Positions 1,920 through 16,717 of a stretch of 21,129 nucleotides of DNA are shown here, piece by piece (the stretch's first letter is position 1; each line of letters starts with the position of its first letter). Origin of the DNA: a virus. The translations under genes were made by a program, and so were the position numbers. Under the pieces are notes generated by a model, which was not told where the DNA came from, made no database searches, and saw only the letters and a program-made list of their open reading frames with translations. The stretch lies in IMG/VR virus record IMGVR_UViG_3300047546_000758, positions 1-21,129 of that record; one strand, 5' to 3'.

Positions 1920-2231
1920 TTACCCCTCTTGTTCTATCCAATCGTAGACCGACATCTTATTACGCTTTGCTTTCCGTTGTAAAGCGTTGCGCTCTCTGTG
2001 ACTTAGACCACCTCTAATGCCATGTTGCTCGTCTAGTTGAAGCGCAGCAATTAGGCACTCTTTACGCACTGGGCACTCTGGTTGCCCATCTTTACCAAAA
2101 CAAATAGCCTTAGCTTGGTCTGCTATCGGCTTATATAACTGTTTGTCTCGTGGGGGAAACCACAAGTCGGTATCCATGCCTTTACATTTTGCATGGTTAT
2201 CCCAATAATCTAGCTCGTCGCCTTTGTACAA
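1920..2231 (-). CDS. WhiB-like Fe-S transcriptional regulator
   Basis: A small WhiB-family protein. Such proteins bind a 4Fe-4S cluster through four cysteines and usually act with the housekeeping sigma factor; phage copies can repress host whiB genes or control phage promoters. Visible features: an early Cys (HAKCKGMDTDLWFPP), then CFGKDGQPECPVRKECLIAA, the family turn GIRGGLSHRER and a basic tail (RNALQRKAKRNK). The second and third cysteines are eight residues apart (CFGKDGQPEC) instead of the usual CxxC, while the final C-x5-C is normal. The start is uncertain: the GTG at 2237 has no Shine-Dalgarno of its own, whereas AGGAG at 2241-2237 lies five bases before the TTG at 2231, so TTG is preferred. 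The family points to an actinobacterial host. Confidence 0.88.
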   Translation of the reverse strand: MYKGDELDYWDNHAKCKGMDTDLWFPPRDKQLYKPIADQAKAICFGKDGQPECPVRKECLIAALQLDEQHGIRGGLSHRERNALQRKAKRNKMSVYDWIEQEG

Positions 2232-2548
2232 GTGCACTCCTGGGGGTGAGTGCAGAGCTCATGAAAATCTGTTTCTAATAAACATACATAGTCTTCGCCG
2301 TTTAGATGAAACCCTAAAACAGGCATACGACTATCCATGATTGCCTCCGTGACAATCTTCTCAAGCACTGCAGCTTTGACAGTGATTTGAGTTTTGCCAG
2401 TCCACTTGTGTTCAATCAACAACTCAGGTGACCTAACATCTCCCTTACGTTGCCAGAAACTTCCGCTCCCCGCGTTGCGCTTCCCACCGAATTTTTTGGC
2501 TAATCGGTCCTCGTGTTTTTTAGATTCTTTTTGGCCTCTAGTCTTCAT
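2210..2548 (-). CDS. Hjc-like PD-(D/E)XK nuclease, probable Holliday junction resolvase
   Basis: A 112-residue protein with the compact layout of archaeal Hjc-type and phage PD-(D/E)XK resolvases: an early acidic residue in KKHEDRLAKKFGGKRN (Glu13), a Gly/Ser-rich turn, KGDVRSPELLIEHKW giving Asp37, Glu46 and Lys48, then a helix and a core beta strand (MPVLGFHLNGEDYVCLLE). The C-terminal tail CTHPQECTCTK has a Cys/His cluster (Cys99, His101, Cys105, Cys107) that may bind a metal. The ATG at 2548 overlaps recA by 11 bases; the frame stays open further into recA, but those residues look like read-through and are not counted. It overlaps the start of the WhiB-like gene. Nuclease fold is likely; substrate is inferred from fold and from the RecA neighbour. 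Confidence 0.8.
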   Translation of the reverse strand: MKTRGQKESKKHEDRLAKKFGGKRNAGSGSFWQRKGDVRSPELLIEHKWTGKTQITVKAAVLEKIVTEAIMDSRMPVLGFHLNGEDYVCLLETDFHELCTHPQECTCTKATS

Positions 2549-4156: not shown

Positions 4157-4671
4157 AGGGGGAAGTTCCTCGTTGCTTCTGATGGTCCTGGTTGGATAAG
4201 GCCAAGATTAAATCCAATTGATAACATAAAAAGACAAGCAGCGTAACCTACTTGGTCGAGAAAAGCCGCGCTTTCCTCTCGAGCTAACTTTATTTGCTCT
4301 AAGTCCTCTGCGCTTATCTCAGGGTGGGTTTCACGTATTGCTTCTTCAAAGCCTTCTTCGTGAATCATGCTAATGATGTAACCATTTATTTCTGCAACAG
4401 CTTGGGCGATTGATTCAAACTCACGGACTCGCTCCATGCGCTCTTTGCTGTCACTTTTTTCCATCTCTTCCCCCTCTTGACTGATTGGAGGAATATCTAG
4501 ATATTTTTGGGCAAATTCTTCAGCTCTTTCAACCTCTAAGTCGTATAAATACCATCTCAATAAAGTTGTCATAGGAAGGTATGCAGAATCTGAGTCACTG
4601 CTGGCAACAAACTCATGCCCAGCAACACCATCGTTGCCTACTCGGTCGTTTAACCAATCTCTAAAACTCAT
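4153..4671 (-). CDS. Hypothetical acidic helical protein downstream of polymerase
   Basis: A 172-residue protein I do not recognise. It begins MSFRDWLNDRVGNDG and overlaps the polymerase stop as ATGA; its own stop overlaps the next gene the same way. Residues about 45-140 are strongly helical and rich in Glu, with EEMEKSDSKERMERVREFE likely to form a coiled coil. A hydrophobic stretch near the C-terminus (VGYAACLFMLSIGFNLGLI, about residues 141-159) could be a membrane segment or a buried helix. The tail is short (QPGPSEATRNFPL). Its place between DNA polymerase and the RecA module suggests a replication or repair accessory, but nothing in the sequence proves that. Confidence 0.75.
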   Translation of the reverse strand: MSFRDWLNDRVGNDGVAGHEFVASSDSDSAYLPMTTLLRWYLYDLEVERAEEFAQKYLDIPPISQEGEEMEKSDSKERMERVREFESIAQAVAEINGYIISMIHEEGFEEAIRETHPEISAEDLEQIKLAREESAAFLDQVGYAACLFMLSIGFNLGLIQPGPSEATRNFPL

Positions 4672-6629
4672 TTAGCCTCACCCCAACGGTCAACTATCTT
4701 GACGTCCGCAATCAAGGGAACATCTAATAGTTTAACGCCTTCCATAGCCTCTCTAATCGCCTCTGCGGTCTGGGTCGCCAGGTGCTCTGGAGTCAGAGTC
4801 ACCAATTCGTCATGAACGGTAAGAATAAGTCTACTCTCTTTTGGAATCATTTGGTGTGCACGCACCATTGCAAGCTTCATAATGTCGGCAGCTGTTCCTT
4901 GGATAACTGTATTAAAGGCCTGGCGGTCAGCGCCCCCCTTTTTAATGCGGTCCCGCGAGTTAATATCGGTGATATATCTGCGCCTACCCATAATGGTCTT
5001 TACAAAACCAACGTTCTCAGCAATGCTGATGACCTTGGATTTATACTTATTAACAGACTTAAAAGCCTTAGCAAAGTCATTAATTAGGTCTCTAGCTTCT
5101 TGAACCTTACAGCCAATGGTCCTTGCTACTTTATCGGGACCAACACCGTATGAAATGGAAAGCACTAAAACTTTTCCCGCAGCTCGGTCAACATTCATTT
5201 TTGTGGCTACTGCCTTGTAGATGTCTTCACCCTTGGTATAAGCCGAAAGCATTGTTTCATCCCTACTGAGTGAAGCAATAATTCGAGGCTCAATTTGTGA
5301 GTAGTCCGCGACTACCAACTTATAATTAGCGGGAGCGACAAATAGATTACGAACAGCGCGTCCATTAGCCGTAGCTGGATTGGGAACGTTCTGTAAGTTT
5401 GGATTCTTAGAACTAAATCGACCAGTTTCCGCCCCGTGCTGGACAAAATCCCCGTGCACTCGGCCTTTAATAAGCAGGCTTTCTTTATCTATCACCTTAG
5501 ACTCACCATTAACCGTTTTTGTGACTTCTCCGCCTAAATAAGGGATTACATAGGTAGTCAATAATTTATTTAAATCTTGATAATCAGTTAAGTGTTGAAT
5601 GATTTCGTGACGTCCAAGCAAACTTTGTAAAGCCTCGGCCGAAGTCGAAAAATCATCCCACTCAAGCTCTTCATATTTTTTGTTTCCTGCGCTGGAAGTT
5701 AATACCTGGGTTTTTAACCCCAAGCCTCCTTCTTTACGAGGTTTATAAAGTAAAGCTTGTTTTTCTTTTACTGAATTGATATTAAAATGACGCCCAGCAG
5801 CACGGTAAATCTCTGCTCTTTTATCTTCAATTTGTTTCTCTAAATCTACTTTTAATTGGGCGAGGGACTCCATATCAATAGGAGCTCCTTCTAATTTCAT
5901 ATGGCATAGCACGTATAAAACGTCCATTTCTAACCGCATAATGCCCATTAAGTTGCGGTCTTCTAAATGCTCTTTAACTTTGGAGTACAAAAGCCATGTG
6001 TATTTAGAGTCAAGACCAGAGTATTTAGCAACCTCATCAAAAGAATGAGCAGCAATATCTTTACCTACACCCTTAACCATGTGGTAATCCAACTCTCGTT
6101 TAAGACAATCATCTAGTCCTAACTTGCCTTTGTAACGAGTGTCATAAATAAAAGAACCTATCAAAGTATCAAAATATGGCTTTGCTACAACTCGATTGTT
6201 GTAATACTTTGCGATAGATGTAATATCAAAAATTATATTGTGACCAATTTTTAACTTGTCACTGAAAAATAAAGGCTCTAACGCCTGAAAAACTTGCTTA
6301 GGAAATAGCTGAACTGGAGGCGCCGTAAACGTCTTTGTAGCTTTCTTCTCGTCCCTTGAATAGTCCGCATCTCGGATTGTAAGTCCTTGAGCTTGTCTTT
6401 TAGCTCCCTGTCCAGTAAGAGGACGAATAAGATTTTCAAAATCGCCATTCGGATGACCCATAGGAATAACGTCAACGCGACCATAAGTAGCAAAGCTAAT
6501 CCATACAACGTTGTTAAGGATTGTGTTGCCTGCATGCTCCCCCATAGTTTCTATGTCGAAGGCAAAAGAATCTTGTTCCATGTAGTAAGCAACCATGTCA
6601 TTTAGTTGCTCAGTGGTTGTAATTATCAT
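4668..6629 (-). CDS. polA: DNA polymerase I (family A) with 3'-5' exonuclease domain
   Basis: Replicative family A polymerase, 653 residues, lacking the 5' nuclease domain of bacterial Pol I, as is usual in phages. The proofreading domain looks intact: Exo I AFDIET (Asp25, Glu27), Exo II IGHNIIFDIT (Asp135), Exo III YSGLD (Tyr203, Asp207). Polymerase motifs: ETGRFSSKNPNLQNVP, motif A ADYSQIEPRI (Asp442), motif B Arg482, Lys486 and Tyr494, and motif C LTVHDELV (His606, Asp607). In motif B the position equivalent to E. coli Phe762 is Leu490 (codon 5162-5160). The ATG at 6629 has the ribosome-binding site AAAGGGG, which is complementary to a segment of the leader hairpin loop. The gene follows the SSB-like gene after 78 bases. 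Confidence 0.96.
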   Translation of the reverse strand: MIITTTEQLNDMVAYYMEQDSFAFDIETMGEHAGNTILNNVVWISFATYGRVDVIPMGHPNGDFENLIRPLTGQGAKRQAQGLTIRDADYSRDEKKATKTFTAPPVQLFPKQVFQALEPLFFSDKLKIGHNIIFDITSIAKYYNNRVVAKPYFDTLIGSFIYDTRYKGKLGLDDCLKRELDYHMVKGVGKDIAAHSFDEVAKYSGLDSKYTWLLYSKVKEHLEDRNLMGIMRLEMDVLYVLCHMKLEGAPIDMESLAQLKVDLEKQIEDKRAEIYRAAGRHFNINSVKEKQALLYKPRKEGGLGLKTQVLTSSAGNKKYEELEWDDFSTSAEALQSLLGRHEIIQHLTDYQDLNKLLTTYVIPYLGGEVTKTVNGESKVIDKESLLIKGRVHGDFVQHGAETGRFSSKNPNLQNVPNPATANGRAVRNLFVAPANYKLVVADYSQIEPRIIASLSRDETMLSAYTKGEDIYKAVATKMNVDRAAGKVLVLSISYGVGPDKVARTIGCKVQEARDLINDFAKAFKSVNKYKSKVISIAENVGFVKTIMGRRRYITDINSRDRIKKGGADRQAFNTVIQGTAADIMKLAMVRAHQMIPKESRLILTVHDELVTLTPEHLATQTAEAIREAMEGVKLLDVPLIADVKIVDRWGEAK

Positions 6630-6631
6630 GC

Positions 6632-6694
6632 TACCCCTTTAAAACTTGAGCGGGGACAAGTTCGGAAAGGGGTAAACGCTGCCCCCGCTCAAGT
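6632..6694 (-). promoter_or_regulatory. Leader hairpin with loop complementary to the polA ribosome-binding site
   Basis: Between the SSB-like stop and polA lies a perfect 12-bp inverted repeat: acttgagcgggg at 6644-6655 and ccccgctcaagt at 6683-6694, with a 27-base loop. Inside the loop, aaaggggta at 6666-6674 is the exact complement of taccccttt at 6632-6640, which on the coding strand is the Shine-Dalgarno region of polA. The mRNA could therefore form the 12-bp stem with the loop pairing to the ribosome-binding site (pseudoknot topology), or switch between stems. On the transcript a short U run (UUUU) follows the stem, so weak attenuation of transcription is another reading. The pairing is seen directly; function is inference. 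Confidence 0.6.
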
Positions 6695-6707
6695 GACCTA
6701 GTGCGTG

Positions 6708-7400
6708 TTAGTTATTGCCAGCAGACAGTTCTTGAGCAATCTCAAGAAGCTCTGCGTATGTGTTCATGCGGTAAAGCGAAGCATCAAACACTTTTGCCTT
6801 GCTAACTACGTCTTCTGCATTAGCCTCGTTGATATTCCAATCTTCTTGGAGGTCACGAGCCTTGATTGCCTGTAGGTGATAGACAGTTGTCTGCATCTTA
6901 CCTGTGCGTGAAATTGCCCAGTAATGCTTGGTCAATGGACCTTGTGGTGAAAAATGTGCAAGGTGCAATGACTTATAGAAACGAGGTGTTGCCAAAATAA
7001 TTTGGCGTTGTGGTCCGCCTTCTGCGGAGAAATTAACAACGCTGAAAGCACGCTTTTCTTCAGCCTTGTTCTTAAGTACGGAGCAAAGTGGGCAATCGGT
7101 GCCACCCTTGCTGTTGAGGCAAACATAAGACTTCTTGCCTGGCTTACCATTTAAGAAGTGTTGCTTGAAGTTTGCAAATGGACCGTCTTGGTCAAGGAAC
7201 TTCACAATTTGTGGTTGTTCCGTATGTTTGAATTCAGTTGGATAACCTTCAGAAGTTTCTGACTGCAAAGCTTCTGCTGCTGCCCAACCTGATGTTACTA
7301 CTGTATCTTCGGTGACTCCCTGTGGGCGGTCATCAACGTCGATTGTTTCTTCCGCTACAACGTAATCGGTAGCGTTTGCTGTTAGTTCGTCGTTTGACAT
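6708..7400 (-). CDS. Phage single-stranded DNA-binding protein (zinc-containing, gp32-like)
   Basis: A 230-residue protein, best read as the phage SSB. It has an acidic, disordered N-terminus (about residues 1-50), then a core where His81 (KQHFLNG) and SYVCLNSKGGTDCPLCSVL give a His/Cys cluster (Cys94, Cys103, Cys106) like the zinc site of T4 gp32-type proteins, followed by beta-rich segments (RAFSVVNFS, RQIILATPRFYKSL, HYWAISRTGKMQTTVYHLQ). It has no classic OB-fold SSB signature and no DDDIPF-type tail. The ATG at 7400 has a good ribosome-binding site (AAGGAAA). Lying directly before DNA polymerase fits a replisome partner. The SSB call combines the zinc pattern with position and is fairly but not fully certain. 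Confidence 0.72.
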   Translation of the reverse strand: MSNDELTANATDYVVAEETIDVDDRPQGVTEDTVVTSGWAAAEALQSETSEGYPTEFKHTEQPQIVKFLDQDGPFANFKQHFLNGKPGKKSYVCLNSKGGTDCPLCSVLKNKAEEKRAFSVVNFSAEGGPQRQIILATPRFYKSLHLAHFSPQGPLTKHYWAISRTGKMQTTVYHLQAIKARDLQEDWNINEANAEDVVSKAKVFDASLYRMNTYAELLEIAQELSAGNN

Positions 7401-7423
7401 ATATTTCCTTATTTCTAGTGTGT

Positions 7424-16063: not shown

Positions 16064-16692
16064 GAGTCTCTCCTCGCCCTCTTGATAGCCAACTTTGCTA
16101 TCTCGTAGATGGCGTCATAAATGGTCTCCATGAGCACTTCCTCTTCAGCTGAGTACTCTTCAGAGGCCTCTACAGGGTCCTCAGGGGCATCTTCCTCTTC
16201 GGGTGTGAGTTGTTCCTGCTCAGGTGCCTCAGCCCGCTTCTTAGGGGGCTTTAATCCAGCCACAGGGGTAATGTCGGTCAGACCATTGGTCAGGTCATAG
16301 CACCCAATGCCTTTAGCGCTCAGGGTGACAAGGGCATCTGCTGAGTCTTGGTCTTCGTCATCCCACAAAAGGAATCCGTAGACCTTAGATGTAGCGCCCT
16401 TGTAAAGCTTGCACGCCTCCTTGAGAGGTTCTTTAGCTTCATGAAAATCTGCAGCAGGGAACGCGGATAGTCGAGATGCATCGGGTGTATATACGACGCA
16501 ATCAAGACCCTTTTCACGAGCAAACTTTGCTGCAATAACCTGTCCCTCCGATGCTCGGTTGAGCACTATCGGAACAATGACAGGCTTAATGTTTTGTTGT
16601 TTTAAAGGAACAATGTAATCGTTTAGTAATGCTTCAATGTTGTTTTTACTTGTCTGACCATTACCAGCGACGAAAAGAAATGCTGAGTCCAT
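16060..16692 (-). CDS. Rossmann-like protein with acidic tail, first gene of replication module
   Basis: A 210-residue protein of unknown function. Residues 1-140 look like an alternating alpha/beta Rossmann-type domain: AFLFVAGNGQTSKNNIEAL (strand, Gly loop, helix), IKPVIVPIVLNRA, GLDCVVYTPDAS, VYGFLLWDDEDQDSADALV and KGIGCYDLTNGLTDI. The order recalls the SLOG/YspA-like nucleotide-binding proteins but I cannot assign it. Residues about 155-195 are a Pro/Glu-rich acidic linker, and the tail ends in a helix (YDAIYEIAKLAIKRARRDS). The ATG at 16692 has AAAGGAG four bases before it; a TTG 15 bases upstream in frame is not credible. Its ribosome-binding site sits in a perfect hairpin. Confidence 0.75.
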   Translation of the reverse strand: MDSAFLFVAGNGQTSKNNIEALLNDYIVPLKQQNIKPVIVPIVLNRASEGQVIAAKFAREKGLDCVVYTPDASRLSAFPAADFHEAKEPLKEACKLYKGATSKVYGFLLWDDEDQDSADALVTLSAKGIGCYDLTNGLTDITPVAGLKPPKKRAEAPEQEQLTPEEEDAPEDPVEASEEYSAEEEVLMETIYDAIYEIAKLAIKRARRDS

Positions 16693-16717
16693 GAGTCTCC
16701 TTTCCAAGGGAGACTCA
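16692..16717 (-). promoter_or_regulatory. Perfect 9-bp dyad covering the start of the replication module
   Basis: Inverted repeat tgagtctcc (16692-16700) and ggagactca (16709-16717) with an 8-base loop. On the mRNA the 3' arm contains the Shine-Dalgarno GGAG and the A of the ATG at 16692, so folding would hide the ribosome-binding site. As DNA it could equally be an operator near the start site of the promoter candidate just upstream. Confidence 0.55.

What the first reader, a model, noticed from the sequence alone, without database searches (positions are those of the whole stretch)
6632..6694. Possible RNA switch or pseudoknot hiding the polymerase ribosome-binding site
A perfect 12-bp stem precedes polA, and nine bases of its loop (6666-6674) are the exact complement of the Shine-Dalgarno region (6632-6640). 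The order stem-loop-stem then downstream partner is that of an H-type pseudoknot, similar in principle to leaders that block ribosome access. A third option, aacttg pairing with caagtt inside the same region, gives a competing small hairpin. This could hold polymerase below SSB levels, respond to a protein such as polymerase itself (as T4 gp43 does with its own leader), or act as attenuator. I know of no described leader with this sequence.
Basis: partly seen in the sequence, partly recalled or inferred. Interest (0 to 1): 0.75.

Follow-up and report, generated by a model that had tools for sequence, protein, structure and literature searches.

The report
Conserved RNA hairpin guarding phage polymerase gene
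In a large family of uncultured viruses, probably of actinobacteria, the short gap before the DNA polymerase gene always folds into a hairpin whose tip usually complements the polymerase's ribosome-binding site, and tip and site tend to be gained and lost together in evolution, which points to an undescribed RNA element controlling how much polymerase is made.

Summary
On the minus strand, a 78-nt gap between a probable SSB gene and a family-A DNA polymerase gene holds a perfect 12-bp hairpin (S1) whose loop carries UACCCCUUU, the exact complement of the polymerase Shine-Dalgarno AAAGGGGUA (S2). It matches no Rfam family. I collected 379 loci (156 distinct leaders). All have a hairpin in this gap, with very different stem sequences. 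Among 105 divergent leaders, 76 have both a C-run in the loop and a G-run Shine-Dalgarno, 20 have neither, 2 and 7 have one only (Fisher 1e-13). The two traits evolve together on the polymerase tree (Pagel-type test p=6e-6). In 4.2 Mb of relatives the motif sits essentially only before polA. Fine-scale compensatory change inside S2 is weak (p~0.02), because the core CCC:GGG never varies. A strict coaxial H-type pseudoknot is sterically doubtful: S1 has a median of 15 bp, the crossing connector 3-4 nt. A partly opened pseudoknot, or an S2 hairpin replacing S1, is more plausible. Most likely it is a cis-acting translational control of polA. The signal (SSB, polymerase, the ribosome finishing ssb, or none) is unknown, and no experiment was possible.

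The parts
6683..6694 (-). S1 5' arm, ACUUGAGCGGGG
   Evidence: Perfect inverted repeat with 6644-6655; L001 keeps the stem with a double change G-C to A-U
6656..6682 (-). S1 loop, 27 nt around the perfect core stem; folding programs extend the stem by several pairs into it
6666..6674 (-). Anti-SD in the loop, UACCCCUUU (S2 5' strand)
   Evidence: Exact complement of 6632-6640; C-run of 4 or more in the loop of 78 of 105 divergent leaders
6644..6655 (-). S1 3' arm, CCCCGCUCAAGU
6632..6640 (-). polA Shine-Dalgarno AAAGGGGUA (S2 3' strand); the G-run ends 4 nt before the AUG
   Evidence: G-run of 3 or more in 83 of 105 leaders; spacing 4-8 nt in nearly all leaders
6657..6662 (-). AACUUG: inner helix of the alternative hairpin, pairs with CAAGUU 6643-6648
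   Evidence: Forms when the S1 5' arm is absent: -21.4 kcal/mol, z -4.2; not conserved in L001
6643..6648 (-). CAAGUU, partner of AACUUG; overlaps the S1 3' arm, so S1 and the alternative hairpin exclude each other
6697..6704 (-). GCACUAGG box between the ssb stop codon and S1; a CUAG-like box recurs at this place in many relatives; role unknown
6708..7400 (-). Upstream gene: gp32-type single-stranded DNA-binding protein (probable)
   Evidence: hhalign to Streptomyces phage BRock gp86 prob 98.8%, E 1e-16; Foldseek to BRock SSB E 2e-11; weak SSB/gp32 profile matches
4668..6629 (-). Downstream gene: family-A DNA polymerase (polA)
   Evidence: Pfam DNA_pol_A E 1e-96

Best explanation
The ssb-polA leader is a cis-acting RNA element that controls translation of the DNA polymerase gene. 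A hairpin (S1) folds right after the ssb stop codon and displays a C-rich loop that can pair with the G-rich Shine-Dalgarno of polA (S2). When S2 forms, by a pseudoknot with part of S1 opened or by S2 replacing S1, ribosomes cannot bind and little polymerase is made; when S1 stands alone the Shine-Dalgarno is mostly free. Shown: both pairings exist in sequence, S1 is universal in the family, and loop C-run and SD G-run are conserved and evolve together. Inferred: that S2 forms in the cell, that it lowers polA translation, and that something shifts the balance. The candidate signal I find most natural is the state of ssb expression: a ribosome terminating on the ssb stop would reach the base of S1, and SSB is a gp32-type protein. 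This last step is speculation.
For: S1 in all 156 distinct leaders from 379 loci, 12-28 bp, median -28.6 kcal/mol. Loop C-run and SD G-run co-occur: 76/20/2/7 in 105 divergent leaders, Fisher 1e-13; phylogenetically controlled correlated-evolution test LR 29.6, p 6e-6, or LR 25.7, p 4e-5 with a stricter G threshold. Independent contrasts: about 4 go the same way, essentially none the other way. Longest loop:SD helix exceeds that of re-paired leaders (5.38 against 5.02, 18 of 20,000 permutations). In the nearest clade the loop CCCCUU and the AAGGGG stay fixed while the stem sequences diverge. Motif almost absent elsewhere in 4.2 Mb, both strands. T-runs after S1 are short (median 3), arguing for translational rather than termination control.
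Against: Within leaders that have both runs, flanking S2 positions covary only weakly (p 0.02; own tail better than nearest neighbour's in 22 against 12, p 0.12). Independent-contrast sign tests alone do not reach 0.05. Nine of 105 leaders keep one run only, among them L068, L365, L330 with a G-run and no C-run. Connector geometry disfavours a full S1+S2 pseudoknot in most members. In the nested model the SD is about 60% unpaired with S1 formed, in both classes.
Confidence: 0.62

Rival explanations
1. S1 is an intrinsic transcription terminator or attenuator between ssb and polA that lets a fraction of polymerase transcription through; the C-run in the loop is incidental.
For: A GC-rich stem followed by U's in the window (UUUU) and in several relatives, longest in members without the loop C-run (L033 has seven T's). 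It would also give less polymerase than SSB.
Against: T-runs after S1 are short (longest run 3 or less in 69 of 105) and interrupted by the SD; some members have almost no T's (L105, L084). Does not explain the coupled C-run and G-run.
Confidence: 0.13
2. S1 is a binding site for a phage protein (SSB or polymerase) that reads stem and C-rich loop, as T4 gp43 reads its operator loop; the G-rich SD matters separately and S2 does not form.
For: Loop sequence CCCCUUUC is strongly conserved in the nearest clade; SSB and DNA polymerase are the two known autoregulators among T4 replication proteins (PMC3014915).
Against: Stem and loop length vary widely; the loop conservation is lost together with the SD G-run, which pairing explains and protein binding alone does not.
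Confidence: 0.13
3. S1 is an RNase processing or 3'-end protecting hairpin for the ssb message, with no control of polA translation.
For: Long stems right after the ssb stop in every member, also in Streptomyces phages BRock and LuckySocke without a loop C-run.
Against: Does not explain the loop:SD relation; may nevertheless be the older function of S1, on which the SD pairing was built.
Confidence: 0.08
4. The C-run/G-run association is a compositional or shared-ancestry coincidence.
For: Only about 10-11 changes of each trait on the tree; core pairs never vary.
Against: Tree-based model test p 6e-6 to 4e-5; motif restricted to one place in 4.2 Mb.
Confidence: 0.04

Closest known systems
T4 gene 32 (SSB) translational operator pseudoknot
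   Same: Phage replication gene, leader with a proposed pseudoknot, gp32-type SSB in play.
   Different: In T4 the pseudoknot lies about 67 nt upstream and nucleates gp32 binding over an unstructured RBS of gene 32 itself (PMC3014915); here the loop pairs with the SD itself and the controlled gene is the polymerase.
T4/RB69 gene 43 (DNA polymerase) operator hairpin
   Same: Hairpin just before a phage DNA polymerase RBS.
   Different: Operator of 16-18 nt with a conserved UAAC loop bound by gp43, no pseudoknot evidence (PMC3014915). Here the stem is 12-20 bp, the loop holds CCCC, and the polymerase is of family A.
SD-sequestering pseudoknot riboswitches (preQ1 classes, SAM-V)
   Same: SD accessibility controlled by an H-type pseudoknot in the leader (abstracts of PMC6061858, PMC11625349, PMC10622847).
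   Different: No conserved sequence beyond the loop and SD runs that would suggest a ligand pocket; S1 too long and connector too short for their compact fold.
ESAS/SAS elements of Cluster K mycobacteriophages
   Same: Inverted repeats directly upstream of start-associated sequences in actinobacterial phages (PMC3203893).
   Different: ESAS has a conserved 17-bp sequence repeated at many genes per genome; here the stem is variable and the element is essentially unique to polA; no loop:SD pairing is described for ESAS in the passages read.

Membership tests
T4 gene 32 type operator | Pseudoknot well upstream of the RBS of the SSB gene's own message | tested here: not met
   The element overlaps the RBS of the next gene, polA
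T4 gene 32 type operator | Specific binding by the phage SSB | not testable with these tools
   SSB identity of the upstream gene is supported; binding needs experiment
T4 gene 43 type operator | Small hairpin with a conserved loop read by the polymerase | tested here: inconclusive
   Loop conserved only as a C-run, absent in about a quarter of leaders; binding not testable
H-type pseudoknot | Loop of a hairpin complementary to a downstream single strand | tested here: met
   9 bp in the window, mostly 4-10 bp in relatives
H-type pseudoknot | Connector lengths compatible with both stems at once | tested here: inconclusive
   Median S1 15 bp against connector 3.5 nt; requires partial opening of S1
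Known Rfam RNA family | Match above gathering score | tested here: not met
   No match in the window; only chance-level hits in the leader
Intrinsic terminator | Stem followed directly by a U-run of about 6 or more | tested here: not met
   Longest T-run is 6 or more in 2 of 105 leaders
ESAS of Cluster K phages | Conserved 17-bp repeat upstream of many genes in one genome | tested here: not met
   Element essentially unique to the ssb-polA gap; stem sequences variable
SD-hiding pseudoknot riboswitch | Specific small-molecule ligand | not testable with these tools
   Variable loops and stems give no hint of a pocket; needs binding assays

The most novel reading that the evidence does not exclude
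A widespread phage RNA switch in which the end of translation of ssb sets whether the loop of an intergenic hairpin captures the polA Shine-Dalgarno, so that SSB and replicative polymerase are balanced within one transcript without any small-molecule ligand.
Probability: 0.2. Interest if true: 0.8.

Novelty: new variant of a known kind. Interest (0 to 1): 0.6.

Why it matters
Translational operators on phage replication genes are known in detail mainly from T4-like phages; a 2010 review (PMC3014915) called the gene 32 pseudoknot possibly the only viral pseudoknot used in autoregulation of translation. Here is an independent, widely distributed candidate on a family-A polymerase gene, small enough to test with a reporter, with natural variants that have lost both halves and serve as ready-made controls.

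Tried and rejected
Rfam at gathering and relaxed thresholds: nothing. Search of bacterial genomes for the polymerase gave no relative, so no host link. The closest isolated phages are Streptomyces phages at 39% polymerase identity; BRock and LuckySocke have a hairpin in the same gap but no C-run loop, and GiJojo and pSt2308 have small ORFs there instead. Intrinsic terminator as the main function: disfavoured on T-runs. The AACUUG:CAAGUU alternative as a general feature: rejected because L001 breaks it. Full S1+S2 coaxial pseudoknot: judged sterically unlikely for most members. Pairwise covariation inside S2: weak, not claimed as proof. RNAalifold on seven leaders did not recover S1 because MAFFT misaligns stems of different length. 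Foldseek of the SSB model against solved structures gave no hit below E 0.001. The literature search found no described leader of this kind, but most subscription papers are not held.

Full report
Setting. The window is a 21-kb virus record. Genes run on the minus strand. The record carries a WhiB-like gene, which suggests an actinobacterial host; no host was found directly. The finding lies in the 78-nt gap between gene 7400-6708 and gene 6629-4668. The downstream gene is a family-A DNA polymerase (Pfam E 1e-96). The upstream gene has no strong family match on its own, but its family profile aligns with the annotated SSB of Streptomyces phage LuckySocke and with gp86 of BRock (hhalign probability 95.7 and 98.8%), its predicted structure (pLDDT 83) matches the BRock SSB (E 2e-11), and members hit gp32 and SSB profiles weakly. 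I treat it as a probable gp32-type SSB.

Observation. Reading 5'-3' on the minus strand...CACUAGGUC-ACUUGAGCGGGG-(GCAGCGUU-UACCCCUUU-CCGAACUUGU)-CCCCGCUCAAGU-UUU-AAAGGGGUA-GC-AUG. A 12-bp repeat does not arise in 2000 shuffles, and a 9-nt loop:tail match arises in about 1 of 800 loop shuffles.

Relatives. Six protein searches of viral contigs gave 379 loci in which the polymerase start and the upstream stop could be placed, and 156 distinct leaders. Several loci come from the same contig, which is why only distinct leaders are counted. Every leader has a hairpin of 12-28 bp. The stems share little sequence; the closest relative L001 already has a double change, G-C to A-U, in the stem while keeping loop C-run and SD, and L034 and L021 differ by another. 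S1 is therefore a conserved structure.

Loop and Shine-Dalgarno. In most leaders the loop holds CCCC or longer and the SD is AAGGGG, AGGGG or GGGGG. Others have neither: loops such as CAACACGUGCUAAGA, CUUGACA or GAAA go with SDs such as AAGGA, GGAG or GAGG. In 105 leaders less than 90% alike, the table for C-run of 4 or more against G-run of 3 or more is 76 both, 20 neither, 2 loop only, 7 SD only (Fisher 1e-13). Relatives are not independent, so I fitted a dependent against an independent two-trait model on the polymerase tree: LR 29.6, p 6e-6; with G-run of 4 or more, LR 25.7, p 4e-5. Paired contrasts on well-supported branches go the same way in about 4 cases and in essentially none the other way, too few for significance alone. 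Re-pairing loops with other leaders' tails shortens the best helix (5.38 to 5.02, 18 of 20,000 permutations). Inside the class that has both runs, single flanking positions covary weakly (positions +1 and +2: p 0.04 and 0.01; best helix p 0.02), and swapping tails between nearest neighbours gives 22 better, 12 worse, p 0.12. So the complementarity appears to be under selection as a whole, but classical pair-by-pair compensation is not demonstrated because the core is invariant.

Specificity. A sequence scan for hairpin, central CCCC and nearby GGGG over 4.2 Mb (both strands) of all loci gave 181 hits in the ssb-polA gap and 48 elsewhere. Of the 24 distinct ones elsewhere, most are the same gap read on the other strand and the few others look like chance.

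Structure. Counting leaders with both runs, medians are S1 15 bp, first loop 4 nt, S2 6 bp (stacking -12.7 kcal/mol), second loop 0 nt, connector 3.5 nt. A connector of 3-4 nt cannot cross 15 bp of A-form helix in a coaxial pseudoknot (general RNA geometry, my knowledge). In the window the perfect core is 12 bp with 10 nt between anti-SD and the 3' arm, so a bent pseudoknot is possible at the cost of the upper S1 pairs; a rough estimate puts it at -33.7 to -36.3 kcal/mol against -33.5 for the S1-only fold, that is, near balance. If the S1 5' arm is unavailable the rest folds into one long hairpin with S2 at its base, -21.4 kcal/mol, z -4.2, and in the whole class the SD becomes about 98% paired, against 86% in the other class. 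Either route hides the SD; S1 alone leaves it mostly open. This is the anatomy of a switch, but the energies are too uncertain to say which state dominates.

Mechanism. I conclude that the element most likely controls polA translation through loop:SD pairing (0.62). A terminator is disfavoured by short T-runs. Protein binding to S1 is possible and compatible with S2. The nature of the signal is open: the ribosome terminating on ssb, SSB, polymerase, or none (a fixed brake that keeps polymerase below SSB).

Comparison. It works like the SD-hiding pseudoknots of small riboswitches and recalls the T4 operators of genes 32 and 43, but it fails or cannot be shown to meet defining features of each (see membership table). 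It matches no Rfam family, and nothing of this kind turned up in the papers searched. The main text of a 104-motif survey of bacterial structured RNAs holds no mention of DNA polymerase. I rate it a new variant of a known kind.

Noticed in passing
window 7401-7423 and 6697-6704 (minus strand): The box ACACUAG / GCACUAG occurs both just before the ssb ribosome-binding site and between the ssb stop and S1; a CUAG-like box recurs between the ssb stop and the hairpin in many relatives. Role unknown (promoter, processing site or RNA contact).
   Followed up: partly
L002, L016, L033, L036, L068, L195 leaders: Hairpins that lack the C-run often carry ACGUG(C) in the loop instead, in more than one clade; it may be a second loop type with its own partner.
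   Followed up: no
L384 831-1192 (GiJojo), L095 2250-2492 (pSt2308): In two Streptomyces phages one or two small ORFs of unknown function lie directly before polA, where relatives BRock and LuckySocke have the intergenic hairpin.
   Followed up: no
window 6708-7400: The SSB family is missed by Pfam and PHROG models at normal cut-offs although it is found next to polA in hundreds of contigs; a new profile would help annotation.
   Followed up: partly
window 1920-2237: Phage-encoded WhiB-like transcription factor (Pfam Whib E 6e-17), pointing to an actinobacterial host.
   Followed up: no
window 16692-16717: Another compact inverted repeat (12-nt arms, 92% complementary, 2 nt apart) spanning the start codon of the gene 16707-16060; not examined.
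   Followed up: no
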